IMG/VR virus record: IMGVR_UViG_3300045996_000376
Span: 1-41,278 of that record
Length of the DNA stretch: 41,278 nucleotides
Source of the DNA: a virus
Reading direction: 5' to 3' (one strand)
Part shown: positions 1-41,278 of the stretch, one piece after another
Position numbering within the stretch: the stretch's first letter is position 1
Layout of the letters: each line of letters begins with the position of its first letter
Notes under the pieces: generated by a model
What the model was told of the DNA's origin: nothing
Databases searched by the model: none
Seen by the model: only the letters and a program-made list of their open reading frames with translations
Made by a program: the position numbers and the translations under genes

Positions 1-177
1 TTCGGGCCAGAACTGGCAGATGGTCTCCAGGCCGGGGTTTTTTGTGTCGCCTCGCTTGATCTTCAGCAGTGTGTGAAAGGGCACGCCCGAACGCTTAGCG
101 AGAGCCTGGAGGTCCATCCGGCTGAGGGCAGCAAGTTTTTCGCGGACCTGCTGGGTGGTGGGGGGTTGAATTGCCAT
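1..177 (-). CDS. Cro-like regulator, partial copy in the left repeat
   Basis: This is the N-terminal 59 codons of the same HTH gene that is complete at 40988-41212. The C-terminus is cut only because the window starts inside the gene. The mismatch at 116 makes codon 21 ATG (Met) here, where the right copy has ACG (Thr). It is not a second gene; on the circle it is the same locus. Confidence 0.85.
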   Translation of the reverse strand, partial: MAIQPPTTQQVREKLAALSRMDLQALAKRSGVPFHTLLKIKRGDTKNPGLETICQFWPE

Positions 178-183
178 GCCACC

Positions 184-239
184 ATCGTACCGCGTTCGGT
201 ACAAGCACGTCAACCGCGTTCGGTATTTTTTATTCGGTA
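184..239. promoter_or_regulatory. Immunity operators and divergent promoters (PR/PRM-like), left copy
   Basis: Two copies of a 14-base inverted-repeat box lie at 188-201 (TACCGCGTTCGGTA) and 212-225 (first base A). A half site TTCGGTA follows at 233-239. On the minus strand TTGACG (208-213), an 18-base spacer and TACGAT (184-189) form a promoter for the Cro-like gene starting at 177. Box 1 covers its -10 and box 2 its -35. On the plus strand TACTGT (238-243) is a weak -10 with no good -35 for the CI-like gene at 250, as expected for an activator-dependent maintenance promoter. That the boxes are repressor operators is inferred from their position and from the same boxes at 1862-1898. Confidence 0.8.
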
Positions 240-249
240 CTGTGCCACG

Positions 250-3254: not shown

Positions 3255-3857
3255 ATGACCGATGTTTCCAAACTGTCCGAATACGATTTCGTCGTTGTGA
3301 TCGACAAATCCGGCTCGATGGGTGAACCCAACAAGCCCGGTTCCAGCGCCACCCGCTGGGAGGCTGTCCAAGAAAGCGCGATGACCTTCGTTCGTGACAT
3401 CGAGAAGCTCGACAGCGACGGCCTGGGCCTGGTTCTGTTCAGCGGCTCCAGCATCGTTTCCAAGGATGGCGTGACCAGCGACAACATCCGCGATGTTTTT
3501 GCCAGCAACCGCCCGAGCGGCTCTACACCACTTGCCGAAGCGCTGACCGAGGCACTGAAGCTGGCCGGCAAGTCCGACAAGAAGGACTTCATCGTCGTCT
3601 TTACCGATGGCGTACCCGATGACAAGGCCGCCGCCGCCAAGGTGATTGCCGACGCATCGCACAAGCAAGAGACCGACGACGCGCTGACGATCCTGTTCGT
3701 TCAGGTCGGCACTGACGCGGGTGCTGCTGCCTACCTGAAGTCGCTGGACGACGACCTGAAGGGCTGCAAGTACGACATCGTTGACGCCAAGACCGTGGCC
3801 GAGGCTGACGCCTACCCGAGCACCGCCGAACTGGTGCTTGCCGCCATCAACGACTGA
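3255..3857 (+). CDS. von Willebrand factor A (VWA) domain protein with intact MIDAS
   Basis: This 200-residue protein is essentially one VWA domain. The metal-ion-dependent adhesion site is complete: DKSGS (Asp17, Ser19, Ser21), Thr91 in GSTPL, and Asp118 in FTDG. Hydrophobic strands alternate with helices as in a Rossmann-like fold. No signal peptide is present, so it acts in the cytoplasm. VWA/MIDAS domains bind Mg2+ and a partner's acidic residue, and often work with AAA+ ATPases or in membrane and stress systems. No ATPase gene lies nearby here. Instead it is followed by three small membrane proteins and preceded by another. ACGGAG lies 6 bases before the ATG. It should be transcribed early from the PL-like promoter. 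Its target is not known. Confidence 0.9.
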   Translation: MTDVSKLSEYDFVVVIDKSGSMGEPNKPGSSATRWEAVQESAMTFVRDIEKLDSDGLGLVLFSGSSIVSKDGVTSDNIRDVFASNRPSGSTPLAEALTEALKLAGKSDKKDFIVVFTDGVPDDKAAAAKVIADASHKQETDDALTILFVQVGTDAGAAAYLKSLDDDLKGCKYDIVDAKTVAEADAYPSTAELVLAAIND

Positions 3858-6163: not shown

Positions 6164-6630
6164 CCACAGCAGCAGAAGCAGCGAAGGCGATTCAGGCGGC
6201 GCTTGATGCGGAGCCAGCGGGCCTGTGCAAGGAGCGCGATGCTGGATACAACCTAGAGGTGCTTCGCCAGCGTCGAGATTGGATTCATTCGGTCGCCGAA
6301 ACAGCATCGCCATACGCCCTCCGCGCCCTCCTAACCGAGCGCACCGCCCTCCTTGCAGCCCGTGAGCAGGATGCAATGGCCTTCCGCATCAAGGAGGAGG
6401 AGTGCGAGCGGTTGAAGGCTTGGAAGGCCCGGGTGATCGCGGCCGCCGAGGTGGCCCACGGCCCGGACGCCGTGCGCTTCAAGCTCTCGCTCCGGCGCAA
6501 CGGCACGGCGACGAACGAGTTTCCGAAGCACCTTGATCAGCGCTGGGTGTCATTCGTCTATGCCGAGGACGACGCCCACATCGGCTACATCGCCAAGGCG
6601 CTTGCAGCCCAGCAGGAGAAGCAGGGATGA
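6160..6630 (+). CDS. Early hypothetical protein
   Basis: This is a 156-residue soluble protein, helical up to about residue 95 with an Arg/Glu-rich probable coiled segment (ERTALLAAREQDAMAFRIKE). A C-terminal region follows with WVSFVYAEDDAHIGYIAKAL. It is coupled to both neighbours by ATGA overlaps. No known domain. Confidence 0.65.
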   Translation: MTTAAEAAKAIQAALDAEPAGLCKERDAGYNLEVLRQRRDWIHSVAETASPYALRALLTERTALLAAREQDAMAFRIKEEECERLKAWKARVIAAAEVAHGPDAVRFKLSLRRNGTATNEFPKHLDQRWVSFVYAEDDAHIGYIAKALAAQQEKQG

Positions 6631-6704
6631 GCCTGATCGCTATTGCCTTCGCAGTCGGCTACTTGCTCGGCTCGCTACCCACACTGAAGGACCAACAACC
6701 ATGA
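6627..6704 (+). CDS. 25-residue membrane peptide between two coupled genes
   Basis: MSLIAIAFAVGYLLGSLPTL is a short hydrophobic helix with a small polar tail. Both its start and its stop are ATGA overlaps with the neighbouring genes, so it is read through by the same ribosomes. That double coupling is the main evidence for such a short gene. Confidence 0.5.
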   Translation: MSLIAIAFAVGYLLGSLPTLKDQQP

Positions 6705-8146
6705 GCACCACACAACTGCCGCCTCTGACAGGCCGCGTGCACGAACTCAAGACCGACCCCGACGCGTTCGACGCGGTAGCTGCCGGACAGAAGACGCACG
6801 AGATCCGCAAGGATGACCGAGGCTTCGCTGTAGGGGATCAGTTGCTTCTCAGGCGCACTCGCTACACGGGCGCTCAGATGCACATGCGGCCTGAGCATTG
6901 CCCTCTGGAGTACACGGGCGCGCAGGAGCTTCGCATTGTGAGCCACATTCAGCACGGCTACGGCTTGAGCGACGGCTGGGTGATCCTAAGCTTCGCAGCT
7001 CCTGCCGCACTCGCCAGCGTTGAGGGTGAGCCGTCCCAGGCGGTGTACCAGCTTCAGAAAGCCGATGGCTCGTGGATCGACCAAGCAAAAGGCAGCTACG
7101 ACTACAACGTGCGGCACGGCGCCAGTACGGTGCGCGTGCTCTTTCTCCGCCCCCAGCCAGCCCAGGCCGATGCGGCGCAGGGTGGGCGGGTGCCGGCCAT
7201 CAAGCTCGACCACTTGATCCCAAATGCCATGCGCCGTTACTTTCGAGTTTGCTCATCTGGGGGGCTACCAAAGAAGACCATCGACAAAGTGATGGTGTAC
7301 GTAGAAGAAGCAGAGCGACTGAACTACTTCAAGCTGGCAATCGCTGAAGCCATGCTCACCGCCTCACCCGAGCCCGCAGCAGCCGGCCAGGAGCCATGGG
7401 GGCACCTGAAGCGCTACGGCTACGCTCCTGGTAACTATATGTCCCGCTGCTCTACTTGCGATCAGGTGGTGAGTGGTCTCGATAAGAGGGCCATCCGCTG
7501 CAAGCCCTGTGCAGAGCAGCTACATACAGACCCACCCGCCAGCCAGGAGCAGGCACAGCAGCCCACGTGCACGACCTGCGCCGGTACCGGCGTGGTTGAT
7601 GACGGTGAGATCGAGTCGGAAGGCGGGGCCAGCTTCGAAAACGGTCCGATCAAGTGCGTAAAGGACTGCCCCACTTGTAGCAAGACCGTCGCGCTGTCGG
7701 CAGCACAGCAGCCCGCGCAGGCTGAGGCCGGCACGGTGGGGGATGAGTGCGCGGCCACTGGCGCAAGCCACTCTTTCGGTGCGCATGGCCCGAATGGGGC
7801 CAGGCAGTGCCAATACTGCGGCGAACCGCAGTTCGAACAGGAGGCGGGCCATGTTGGCGATACGCGCTTTGAAGGCTGGCTTGGTTGCCACGAGCCAGAC
7901 CGCACCGATGGCCGCTCGATGCGCTACACGAAGAAGGACATGCGATGTGCTTACTGGGCCGGCTACAGCGAGCGCGCCGCCCTGCAATCCGCCCAGGCGG
8001 TGGGGGAGGACAGCAAACGCCTCGATTGGCTGCTTCTGCGCGTCTCCGGGCAAGAGTTCCGCCGCATCGGTGTCTTCTACAGCGGTAACGCACGCCGGGC
8101 AGACATCGACGCCGCCCTCGCCAACAACCAAGGGGGCAAGGCGTGA
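6701..8146 (+). CDS. Multidomain early protein: DUF3850 (ASCH/PUA-like) plus zinc-ribbon segments
   Basis: This 481-residue protein is a mosaic. Residues about 10-105 match the DUF3850 pattern (HELKTDPDAFDAVAAGQKTHEIRKDD region, then YGLSDGWVILSF), a PUA/ASCH-like fold linked to RNA or modified-base binding. A segment near 105-150 (VYQLQKADGSWIDQ) resembles another phage accessory module. From about 250 to 400 come several CxxC pairs (CSTC/CKPC, CTTC/CPTC, CQYC) like DnaJ-type or rubredoxin-like zinc knuckles. The end (KRLDWLLLRVSGQ with DIDAAL) is typical of small phage accessory proteins. It looks built by fusion of short phage modules. ATG 6701 is the coupled start. Confidence 0.75.
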   Translation: MSTTQLPPLTGRVHELKTDPDAFDAVAAGQKTHEIRKDDRGFAVGDQLLLRRTRYTGAQMHMRPEHCPLEYTGAQELRIVSHIQHGYGLSDGWVILSFAAPAALASVEGEPSQAVYQLQKADGSWIDQAKGSYDYNVRHGASTVRVLFLRPQPAQADAAQGGRVPAIKLDHLIPNAMRRYFRVCSSGGLPKKTIDKVMVYVEEAERLNYFKLAIAEAMLTASPEPAAAGQEPWGHLKRYGYAPGNYMSRCSTCDQVVSGLDKRAIRCKPCAEQLHTDPPASQEQAQQPTCTTCAGTGVVDDGEIESEGGASFENGPIKCVKDCPTCSKTVALSAAQQPAQAEAGTVGDECAATGASHSFGAHGPNGARQCQYCGEPQFEQEAGHVGDTRFEGWLGCHEPDRTDGRSMRYTKKDMRCAYWAGYSERAALQSAQAVGEDSKRLDWLLLRVSGQEFRRIGVFYSGNARRADIDAALANNQGGKA

Positions 8147-13669: not shown

Positions 13670-13740
13670 CGCTGATAGGTTCGCTCGACATATCAGCGCA
13701 ATGTGTCGAATTCAGCGCGCTGGATCGACATGACAGAGGG
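13670..13740. repeat. Interlocking inverted repeats at the end of the late operon
   Basis: CGCTGATA (13670-13677) pairs with TATCAGCG (13691-13698). TCGACA (13685-13690) pairs with TGTCGA (13704-13709), and TCGACA recurs at 13735-13740. There is no T run, so it is not an ordinary terminator. It may be a transcript-end structure or a protein-binding site. Confidence 0.55.
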
Positions 13741-13999
13741 CGGCGGCGCGGCACTCACGATAGACACCGATCACCTCAATCAGCTTGTCCGTGGTCGCGC
13801 CCATCGTCCGGTCCGGGAGCGCTCCCAGATCCTGTGGGCACGACGCCGTCACCAGCGCCTCGCAGCGCCCCGTTGAGGGCGTCGAACACCCGCTCGTCAT
13901 GAGCGCAAGCAGAATCGCGGTACACAGGCACCTCGCGCGTGACGGTCTTGACACGGGTGACAACTTTGACGGATTGGGTCTTGGCTTGAGCGACTGCAT
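13712..13999 (-). CDS. Rz1-like outer-membrane spanin lipoprotein
   Basis: This 95-residue frame lies largely inside the Rz gene in another frame and runs 64 bases beyond it. Start ATG 13999 gives a basic N-terminus, a hydrophobic segment (CLCTAILLALM) and lipobox TSGC with Cys38. The mature part is short with several Pro and Cys, as in Rz1 proteins. Together with Rz it should bridge the envelope and fuse inner and outer membranes in the last step of lysis. The upstream in-frame ATT-type starts are unlikely. Confidence 0.8.
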   Translation of the reverse strand: MQSLKPRPNPSKLSPVSRPSRARCLCTAILLALMTSGCSTPSTGRCEALVTASCPQDLGALPDRTMGATTDKLIEVIGVYRECRAAALCHVDPAR

Positions 14000-14144
14000 T
14001 GCCGGCTCCTTTCTGTGCAGAATCGTCCGCTTTGGACTGACTGGCCACCACGGACGCGGCACCGTCTTGCCGGCCCTGGTAGTAGATTGCGCCATGGGTG
14101 GCGGCGGCCAGCACCACGGCGCCGAGGATGGCGGAGGGGTTCAT
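13776..14144 (-). CDS. Rz-like inner-membrane spanin
   Basis: This 122-residue protein has an N-terminal membrane anchor (ILGAVVLAAATHGAIYY, about 5-22) followed by an Ala/Gln/Lys-rich helical periplasmic part. RVKTVTREVPVYRDSACAHD, typical of Rz proteins, comes next. The start overlaps the upstream gene by ATGA. The nested Rz1 gene in the alternate frame is strong context evidence. Confidence 0.85.
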   Translation of the reverse strand: MNPSAILGAVVLAAATHGAIYYQGRQDGAASVVASQSKADDSAQKGAGNAVAQAKTQSVKVVTRVKTVTREVPVYRDSACAHDERVFDALNGALRGAGDGVVPTGSGSAPGPDDGRDHGQAD

Positions 14145-14542
14145 GACACGGTGATCGTGATGGCCTGACCCTTGGCCTTTGCGGCCTTGAGCTTGGCGAA
14201 CAGGGCGTCAAACGCCGCCCGGCTGGAGAGGATGCAGTTTTGCCCCCTCCCCTGCCCCACGAGAATGCAGCCCTCTGTGTCGCTGGCCGTGTTCCCTGGG
14301 TGAATGCGGATGCCGATGAAGTTCTCCACCCCGATCAGCAGCGGCAAGTCGCGCTTGAAACGAGGCGAACGCGTGATGTCCACGCTGTAGGTGCCGCGCG
14401 GGATGGCGGTCTCACCGTACACCTTCACCCCATCGGCCCGCACCACATCTTCCAAGGTGAAGCACTCGTGCTTGCCGTCTATCAACAGTTCGCCGATGGT
14501 GCACACCTTGCCGCATTCCGTGCGGCGCAAATCAAGTTTCAT
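14141..14542 (-). CDS. DUF5675 protein in the endolysin position
   Basis: This 133-residue protein has IPRGTYSV (about 47-54), a central IRIHPGN (His81) and TEGCILVG (Cys92). The order P-x-G-x-Y, then His, then Gly-Cys resembles the active site of L,D-transpeptidase (YkuD) enzymes, which act on peptidoglycan stem peptides through a Cys. It lies between the holin and the spanins with ATGA overlaps on both sides, exactly where an endolysin belongs. No muramidase, amidase or transglycosylase is found elsewhere. DUF5675 membership is recognised from its pattern; lytic activity is my inference. There is no signal peptide, so it would need the holin. Confidence 0.75.
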   Translation of the reverse strand: MKLDLRRTECGKVCTIGELLIDGKHECFTLEDVVRADGVKVYGETAIPRGTYSVDITRSPRFKRDLPLLIGVENFIGIRIHPGNTASDTEGCILVGQGRGQNCILSSRAAFDALFAKLKAAKAKGQAITITVS

Positions 14543-14970
14543 GGCAGCAGCTCCTTTGCATCGCGGTAGATGTCGTCCCCGGCCTTGTCCTTGAACTTGG
14601 CCATGGTGTTGAAGGCGATGCGCACCAGCACCCAGCCAGGCAGGCCGCAGGCGAACACCGCGCCAATCACTTGGATGAGCCCGAGCACCACCTCAATGTC
14701 GTTGTGCGACGTCAGAGGCGTGTGCAGGCCAAGGTAGAGCACGACAGCAGCCCCAAGGCCGAACGAGGATGACAGTGTGCTGATGAGCGCCATAGCCCAC
14801 TCCCGGGTCGTCCTTGGTTGCGTGGCAATCATCACCAGCGCTGCCGCCAGCGAGAACCCAAGGAAGGCCAGCGCGCCAAGCGCTACCCAGAATGTCATTC
14901 CCAAGATGCGAGCCACCTCACCGGTTCCCGCTGCTGCTGATGCCTCAACTGCCATTTGCTTGCTTTCCAT
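14539..14970 (-). CDS. Holin candidate with three transmembrane segments
   Basis: This 143-residue protein has hydrophobic segments at about 26-50, 57-81 and 93-117 and a charged C-terminal tail (KFKDKAGDDIYRDAKELL). The location directly upstream of the DUF5675/Rz/Rz1 genes and the three-helix topology fit a class I holin, although it is longer than most. ATG 14970 is chosen because the longer frame upstream is Cys/Arg-rich and overlaps the next gene. Confidence 0.75.
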   Translation of the reverse strand: MESKQMAVEASAAAGTGEVARILGMTFWVALGALAFLGFSLAAALVMIATQPRTTREWAMALISTLSSSFGLGAAVVLYLGLHTPLTSHNDIEVVLGLIQVIGAVFACGLPGWVLVRIAFNTMAKFKDKAGDDIYRDAKELLP

Positions 14971-14993
14971 GTGCACAGAACCTCGTGCGTGCG

Positions 14994-15341
14994 TTAAGTG
15001 AGATTGCGCGCAGCTAAGGCATCCGCCCTCACCCGCTCGATTGCTTCGTCCGTCGTGACTGGTGCGTGTGCAGCCGGCCACGGCGGGGAACTGATGAGAT
15101 CCACCAAGGCGGGAGGCTCGGGCCTGGGCTTGGGCTTCGGAGGGATTGGCTTGTGCGGCCTGGCGAGCGCCTGCCGCCCCTCTTCAGTCAGCACGTAGCA
15201 CCGCTCGACCAAGCCGAACTGGCACAGCCGATGCAGCGCCCATGTGACGAAAGAAACGTCGTCACACCGGACCTGGCCGCCCAGGACTGCAAGCTTTTGC
15301 AACAACTGGTGAGGCTTGGAGCCGGTGTAGACGCGCTTCAT
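14994..15341 (-). CDS. Hypothetical protein between tailspike and holin
   Basis: This 115-residue protein has an N-terminal region that looks like a winged helix (KPHQLLQKLAVLGGQVRCDD, TWALHRLCQFGLVERCYVLT). A Pro/Lys linker (PHKPIPPKPKPRPEPP) and an acidic/Ala helix follow. It may bind DNA. Its place in the late operon gives no clear role. Confidence 0.65.
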   Translation of the reverse strand: MKRVYTGSKPHQLLQKLAVLGGQVRCDDVSFVTWALHRLCQFGLVERCYVLTEEGRQALARPHKPIPPKPKPRPEPPALVDLISSPPWPAAHAPVTTDEAIERVRADALAARNLT

Positions 15342-40987: not shown

Positions 40988-41212
40988 TCACCCCTTCGCC
41001 GTCTCGGCAGGCTTGCGCTTGGTGGGGGTGGAGAGTTCGGGCCAGAACTGGCAGATGGTCTCCAGGCCGGGGTTTTTTGTGTCGCCTCGCTTGATCTTCA
41101 GCAGTGTGTGAAAGGGCACGCCCGAACGCTTAGCGAGAGCCTGGAGGTCCGTCCGGCTGAGGGCAGCAAGTTTTTCGCGGACCTGCTGGGTGGTGGGGGG
41201 TTGAATTGCCAT
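40988..41212 (-). CDS. Cro-like HTH regulator, first gene of the leftward lytic operon
   Basis: This 74-residue protein has an XRE-type HTH (LQALAKRSGVPFHTLLKIKR, GDTKNPGLETICQF) and a basic Lys/Pro tail. It starts at ATG 41212 with no ribosome site; the -10 of its promoter ends only 6 bases before the ATG, implying a leaderless message. It is divergent from the CI-like gene across the operators and precedes the CII/O-like genes, so it holds the Cro position. The in-frame start at 41248 lies inside the promoter and is rejected. Confidence 0.8.
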   Translation of the reverse strand: MAIQPPTTQQVREKLAALSRTDLQALAKRSGVPFHTLLKIKRGDTKNPGLETICQFWPELSTPTKRKPAETAKG

Positions 41213-41278
41213 GCCACCATCGTACCGCGTTCGGTACAAGCACGTCAACCGCGTTCGGTATTTTTTATTCGGTACTGT
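41036..41278. repeat. Terminal direct repeat, right copy
   Basis: Second copy of bases 1-243 with G at 41151 instead of A. It encodes Thr21 of the Cro-like protein where the left copy encodes Met21. It supports circularity of the genome. Confidence 0.95.
41219..41274. promoter_or_regulatory. Immunity operators and PR-like promoter, right copy
   Basis: Same array as at 184-239: boxes at 41223-41236 and 41247-41260 and the half site at 41268-41274. The leftward promoter is TTGACG (41243-41248), spacer 18, TACGAT (41219-41224). Confidence 0.8.

What the first reader, a model, noticed from the sequence alone, without database searches (positions are those of the whole stretch)
14141..14542. DUF5675 as a candidate new endolysin type
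The lysis cassette has holin and spanins, but in the endolysin position stands a 133-residue DUF5675 protein with P-x-G-x-Y, His81 and Gly-Cys92, as in L,D-transpeptidase active sites. No muramidase, amidase or transglycosylase is found in the window. A Cys enzyme acting on stem-peptide bonds would be an unusual lysis mechanism.
Basis: partly seen in the sequence, partly recalled or inferred. Interest (0 to 1): 0.75.

Follow-up and report, generated by a model that had tools for sequence, protein, structure and literature searches.

The report
DUF5675: probable cysteine-type phage endolysin
A small phage protein of officially unknown function sits exactly where phages keep the enzyme that bursts their host, and its invariant His/Cys active site resembles peptidoglycan stem-peptide (L,D-transpeptidase-type) enzymes, so it is probably an unrecognised family of host-bursting enzymes shared by very different phages.

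Summary
The gene is on the minus strand (14542-14141, 133 aa, DUF5675, E 6.5e-32). It sits between a three-helix membrane protein and a Rz/Rz1-like spanin pair, with 4-base ATGA overlaps on both sides. The genome appears complete (243-bp end repeat), and Pfam finds no other peptidoglycan hydrolase among 66 ORFs.

His81 and Gly91-Cys92 are invariant in 253 relatives, including 80/80 found with a pattern that does not contain the Cys. A DUF5675 profile aligns with Tlde1_dom (L,D-carboxypeptidase/transpeptidase) with His and Cys in register (93.8%, P 1.7e-7), and weakly with YkuD. However, two confident AlphaFold models give no significant PDB match. The (S/T)HGC histidine is mostly absent, so it is not a YkuD member.

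Context favours an endolysin. Membrane-protein neighbours are 64% versus 10% in controls. Six common endolysin families are nearly absent from the DUF5675 phages searched. The same holin-like gene is followed by Amidase_3+Rz or GH108 in other phages, i.e. slot replacement.

It is not wholly new: crAss-like phage records already call relatives "L,D-carboxypeptidase/transpeptidase". Activity is untested. Best reading: a holin-dependent Cys L,D-peptidase endolysin, new variant of a known kind.

The parts
14141..14542 (-). DUF5675 protein, 133 aa, no signal peptide or hydrophobic segment; candidate endolysin
   Evidence: Pfam PF18925 E 6.5e-32; phrog_1501; no KD19 peak above 1.3; AlphaFold pLDDT 95.5, pTM 0.89
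14300..14302 (-). His81 codon, putative catalytic His at the end of a beta strand
   Evidence: 253/253 conserved; strand 79-81; aligned with the Tlde1_dom His
14267..14269 (-). Cys92 codon (T89-x-G91-C92), putative nucleophile
   Evidence: 80/80 in a Cys-independent sample and 16/16 in a second sample; aligned with the Tlde1_dom Cys
14539..15081 (-). Three-helix membrane protein, PHROG 1024, holin-like; the likely start is the ATG at 14967 (142 aa)
   Evidence: phrog_1024 E 1.1e-24; hydrophobic peaks 2.34, 2.23, 1.76; relatives directly precede Amidase_3 or GH108 endolysins in other phages
13776..14144 (-). Rz-like i-spanin, 122 aa
   Evidence: phrog_8821 Rz-like spanin E 3.9e-5 and three other Rz PHROGs; N-terminal hydrophobic stretch
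13712..14095 (-). Rz1-like o-spanin candidate, out of frame and overlapping Rz; hydrophobic stretch then ...LALMTSGC lipobox-like motif; possible start at 13999
   Evidence: translation and hydrophobicity; phrog_2425 unknown function E 2.9e-5
14539..14542 (-). ATGA overlap, holin-like stop / DUF5675 start
   Evidence: sequence
14141..14144 (-). ATGA overlap, DUF5675 stop / Rz start
   Evidence: sequence

Best explanation
DUF5675 is the endolysin of this temperate podovirus-like phage. It is a small soluble cysteine enzyme without export signal. It would be made from a translationally coupled holin-DUF5675-Rz/Rz1 cassette and reach the periplasm when the holin opens. There, Cys92, activated by His81, would attack the L,D bond after meso-DAP in the stem peptide. 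In a 4-3 crosslinked sacculus that bond lies inside the crosslink, so hydrolysis opens the wall; the spanins then finish lysis. Shown: cassette position and overlaps, conservation, absence of other recognised lysins, slot replacement by known lysins, profile similarity to Tlde1_dom. Inferred: holin and spanin functions, catalytic roles of His/Cys, bond cleaved, and the lytic activity itself.
For: (a) Cassette: PHROG 1024 membrane protein - DUF5675 - Rz/Rz1 with ATGA overlaps. (b) No other peptidoglycan hydrolase by Pfam in an apparently complete genome. (c) Slot replacement: the PHROG 1024 relative is followed by Amidase_3 (E 6.2e-25) and then Rz-like spanin in phage T4S1-k141_502596, and by GH108 + PG_binding_3 (E 6.5e-26) in Acinetobacter phage Aclw_8. 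(d) In 82 non-redundant viral loci, 77/120 immediate same-strand neighbours of DUF5675 carry a membrane segment against 26/268 for control genes of the same loci (OR 16.7, p 5e-28); 60/75 loci against 24/176. Neighbours include five holin PHROGs and an Rz-like spanin, and no endolysin family is among those shown. In 28 viral loci (redundant) a lipoprotein with C-terminal membrane segment (u-spanin architecture) follows directly. (e) Records searched for common endolysin families: 0/50 PF00959, 0/50 PF01510, 0/50 PF13539; 0/49 PF01520 and 1/49 PF05838 apart from one added positive-control record each, which was found; 0/31 PF08291. (f) Complete 4.9-6.8 kb microvirus genomes carry DUF5675 among their 6-7 annotated genes. 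(g) Invariant His/Cys and profile similarity to Tlde1_dom, whose member Tlde1a uses Cys131 as an L,D-carboxypeptidase/transpeptidase (PMC9638812).
Against: No activity data. Foldseek of two confident models finds no significant PDB match and no L,D-transpeptidase among the 50 listed. The motif lacks the second His of (S/T)HGC in most members. In T4-like Vibrio phage D506 the gene lies between portal and scaffold genes, not in a lysis cassette. 15 of 75 scored viral loci have no membrane neighbour; in bacterial genome loci 34 of 66 have one. The record of L042 also carries a GH108 match.
Confidence: 0.7

Rival explanations
1. Catalytic editing rather than hydrolysis of crosslinks: as with Tlde1a, the enzyme trims tetrapeptides or swaps D-Ala4, starving crosslink formation so that growing cells burst. 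It is a holin-delivered inhibitor of wall building rather than a degrader.
For: The closest profile match is Tlde1_dom, whose studied member cleaves mDAP3-D-Ala4 and exchanges D-Ala4 and is toxic (PMC9638812).
Against: Same slot as true hydrolases. Holin-triggered lysis normally follows membrane collapse, when wall synthesis has stopped, so starving synthesis would be too slow (established lysis physiology). The (S/T)HGC histidine, which contacts the D-Ala4 carboxylate in the docked Tlde1a model, is mostly absent, which suits an endopeptidase better.
Confidence: 0.15
2. Accessory or structural role: a peptidoglycan-remodelling or virion-assembly enzyme, with the real endolysin being an unrecognised protein elsewhere in the genome.
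For: DUF5675 lies in the head operon of Vibrio phage D506, a phage that also has a gene annotated as tail lysozyme. DUF5675 domains occur in long proteins such as that of Ralstonia phage RP31. Many window genes are unassigned.
Against: Cassette position, coupling, replacement by known lysins and absence of common lysins in most records searched.
Confidence: 0.12
3. A canonical YkuD-family L,D-transpeptidase that forms 3-3 crosslinks, strengthening the wall or excluding other phages.
For: Weak local profile match to YkuD around the His and Cys (25%, P 7.5e-4).
Against: No Pfam YkuD hit; different spacing and missing second His; no PDB fold match; a crosslink-forming enzyme in a lysis cassette makes little sense.
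Confidence: 0.03

Closest known systems
Tlde1_dom (PF10908; T6SS effector Tlde1a of Salmonella)
   Same: IP-x-G-x-Y, (F/I)-R-(I/L)-H and S/T-x-G-C-I motifs in the same order; His-to-Cys spacing 10 in Tlde1a and 11 here; profile-profile 93.8%, P 1.7e-7
   Different: Phage lysis cassettes instead of T6SS effector loci; extra N-terminal strands with invariant Glu31; G83-N84 after the His; no direct Pfam hit; no PDB fold match
YkuD L,D-transpeptidases (PF03734)
   Same: Order of strand-His ... Gly-Cys-Ile; weak local profile match
   Different: Below Pfam detection; spacing 11 instead of the longer canonical spacing; second His of (S/T)HGC mostly absent; no fold match
crAss-like phage 'L,D-carboxypeptidase/transpeptidase'
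   Same: Same family (31-56% identity), next to a gene annotated 'lysis regulatory protein/holin'
   Different: Annotation only; different phage order and gene arrangement
Gram-negative phage endolysins Amidase_3, GH108, GH19
   Same: Amidase_3 and GH108 stand in the same slot after the same holin-like family; a GH19 endolysin stands downstream of the tail genes in Pam5, which shares the structural module
   Different: Unrelated sequence; amidase or glycosidase chemistry instead of a cysteine peptidase
PhaLP class YkuD (cd16913, PF03734, PF10908)
   Same: Shows that L,D-transpeptidase-type domains are already counted among phage lytic proteins (PMC8310338)
   Different: Only 10 proteins in that class; DUF5675 was not in the passage shown

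Membership tests
DUF5675 (PF18925) | Pfam match above the curated cut-off | tested here: met
   110.2 bits against 26.7
YkuD (PF03734) | Pfam match above cut-off | tested here: not met
   no match in the protein or in the window
YkuD (PF03734) | motif HXX14-17-(S/T)HGCh | tested here: not met
   His and Cys present, but spacing 11 and the HGC histidine in only 11 of 253
YkuD (PF03734) | L,D-transpeptidase fold | tested here: inconclusive
   no significant Foldseek PDB match for two models, no LDT in the 50 listed; no positive control could be run; coordinates not available
Tlde1_dom (PF10908) | Pfam match above cut-off | tested here: not met
   only DUF5675 matched
Tlde1_dom (PF10908) | remote homology with catalytic residues in register | tested here: met
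   hhalign 93.8%, P 1.7e-7; score 46.9 against a maximum of 19.3 in 100 column shuffles
Phage endolysin (functional class) | encoded between holin and spanin genes | tested here: met
   the holin is a PHROG of unannotated function
Phage endolysin (functional class) | only recognised peptidoglycan hydrolase of the genome | tested here: met
   Pfam on 66 ORFs of an apparently complete genome
Phage endolysin (functional class) | replaced by known endolysins in the same slot | tested here: met
Phage endolysin (functional class) | degrades peptidoglycan and is needed for lysis | not testable with these tools
   needs experiment

The most novel reading that the evidence does not exclude
DUF5675 is a widespread unrecognised endolysin family of cysteine L,D-endopeptidases. 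It would be the sole wall-cutting enzyme of phages as different as ssDNA microviruses, crAss-like phages and podoviruses infecting Gram-negative bacteria, in some partnered directly with u-spanins.
Probability: 0.5. Interest if true: 0.72.

Novelty: new variant of a known kind. Interest (0 to 1): 0.58.

Why it matters
Pfam and PHROGs call this family unknown, and NCBIfam has no model that matches it, yet hundreds of phage contigs carry it, most of those sampled in lysis-like contexts. If it is an endolysin it assigns a lysis gene to many phages that appear to lack one, including microviruses and gut crAss-like phages. It would add a cysteine L,D-peptidase mechanism to an enzyme class dominated by glycosidases, amidases and metallo-, NlpC- or CHAP-type peptidases. 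Small one-domain enzymes with a defined Cys can be tested quickly.

Tried and rejected
YkuD membership: rejected (Pfam, motif, fold search). A hidden conventional endolysin in the window: none by Pfam at E<=0.01; PHROG scans showed none among the families listed, but only the first 25 are listed per scan. A chance ORF: rejected (strong family match, high GC3 bias, coupling). NCBIfam gave no model. Sequence searches of the PDB with the protein and with a profile gave nothing meaningful. The 'Phage_tail_terminator' and 'TctB' weak Pfam hits of the neighbours lie below cut-off and were not used. Scans with a microvirus protein, with the single protein in genome contigs and with the head-closure protein found no relatives. 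The negative for PF00182 is weak because nothing rang in its controls and is not counted among the six families. Ab105-2phi has the holin-like gene but no annotated lysin directly after it, and Pfam finds none in the two neighbours tested.

Full report
Observation. The ORF at 14141-14542 lies on the minus strand and is a DUF5675 protein. Its neighbours on the same strand are a three-helix protein of PHROG 1024 upstream, and downstream an Rz-like protein with an embedded out-of-frame lipoprotein-like frame. Both junctions are ATGA overlaps, and AAGGAG stands shortly before the DUF5675 start. The window has a 243-bp end repeat (99.6%), so it appears to be a whole genome of about 41 kb. It has a P22-type portal, an integrase, NinB/NinG and beta-helix proteins. 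Pfam over 66 ORFs shows no other peptidoglycan hydrolase.

Conservation. 194 phage records, at least 593 viral contig stretches and 415 stretches in bacterial genomes encode relatives. E31, G50, H81, G83, N84, G91 and C92 are invariant in 253 sequences, and the H-to-C spacing is always 11. Since two scans were baited with the Cys motif, I rely on the 80 genome loci found with a Cys-free pattern and on 16 others found by tblastn or a single-protein scan: all have the Cys. Only 1 of 253 has a hydrophobic N-terminus, so export must depend on a holin or another route.

Fold and homology. AlphaFold models of the window protein (pLDDT 95.5) and of a 33%-identical relative (94.8) are confident. Foldseek found no significant match in the PDB for either model, and in the viral library essentially DUF5675 relatives. 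Profile-profile comparison is clearer. DUF5675 against Tlde1_dom gives 93.8%, P 1.7e-7 over 57 columns, with IP-x-G-x-Y, His and Gly-Cys-Ile aligned. Against YkuD it gives 25%, P 7.5e-4. Tlde1_dom against YkuD gives 90.3%. Column shuffles reach at most 19.3, 18.0 and 17.3 against scores of 46.9, 27.7 and 41.1. So DUF5675 is most likely a compact, far-diverged relative of the Tlde1-like branch, not a YkuD member. In Tlde1a, H121, S128, H129 and C131 form the site, and H129 contacts the D-Ala4 carboxylate in docked models (PMC9638812). DUF5675 keeps the equivalents of H121, S128 (Thr89) and C131 but usually has Glu or Asp in place of H129. This would suit a substrate without a free D-Ala4 carboxylate, i.e. 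a crosslink; that is inference.

Context. In 82 non-redundant viral loci, 64% of immediate same-strand neighbours carry a membrane segment, against 10% for control genes in the same loci. Holin PHROGs and an Rz-like spanin occur among them, and no endolysin family is among the families shown. In 28 loci a lipoprotein with a C-terminal membrane segment, the build of a unimolecular spanin, follows directly, and in one contig (L063/L117) the two read as one ORF. Records searched for common endolysin families gave: Phage_lysozyme 0/50, Amidase_2 0/50, M15_4 0/50, Amidase_3 0/49 and GH108 1/49 (not counting the positive-control records, which were found), M15_3 0/31. Many of these records may be fragments, so the counts are indicative. 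The best evidence is slot replacement: the PHROG 1024 relative precedes Amidase_3 and Rz in phage T4S1-k141_502596, and GH108 in Acinetobacter phage Aclw_8.

Exceptions. Vibrio phage D506 has the gene between portal and scaffold genes. Some loci have no membrane neighbour, and the L042 record also has a GH108 match. A secondary role in some phages is likely.

Prior knowledge. crAss-like phage records name relatives 'L,D-carboxypeptidase/transpeptidase'. PhaLP lists a small YkuD class including PF10908 (PMC8310338). The two held papers that name DUF5675 only list it as a domain in lytic Vibrio phages without a role (PMC10671443, PMC9229204), and in Virtus it directly precedes a membrane protein. 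No experimental test was found in the held library, which lacks most subscription journals.

Verdict.

Noticed in passing
window 1-243 and 41036-41278: 243-bp direct end repeat with one mismatch; the contig appears circular or terminally redundant, so the genome is about 41.0 kb and complete.
   Followed up: yes
L063 10001-10948 and L117 (same contig): DUF5675 and a lipoprotein with C-terminal membrane segment (u-spanin-like) read as one 315-aa ORF: a possible endolysin-spanin fusion, or a lost stop codon or sequencing error.
   Followed up: partly
L051, L028, L035, L046, L054, L044 and others (28 viral loci): DUF5675 directly followed or overlapped by a gene with u-spanin architecture (N-terminal lipobox, C-terminal membrane segment).
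   Followed up: partly
L006, L094, L095, L096 (complete microvirus genomes): ssDNA microviruses of 4.9-6.8 kb carry DUF5675; how a soluble enzyme would cross the membrane there is unclear.
   Followed up: partly
L296/L093, Vibrio phage D506, record 6263-6715: DUF5675 gene within the head operon between portal and scaffold genes; the same match recurs in many related Vibrio phages.
   Followed up: no
BFVD A0A1L7N1E2_2 (Ralstonia phage RP31): DUF5675 domain within a protein model of over 1200 residues, possibly a virion-associated peptidoglycan enzyme.
   Followed up: no
window 3255-3857 (+): Protein with a von Willebrand factor A domain in the non-structural half of the phage.
   Followed up: no
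window 14539-15081; L292, L294: PHROG 1024 is 'unknown function', but its members in T4S1-k141_502596 and Aclw_8 directly precede endolysin genes; it is probably a holin family. Some of its genes are named 'ammonia monooxygenase/methane monooxygenase' in Acinetobacter phage records.
   Followed up: partly
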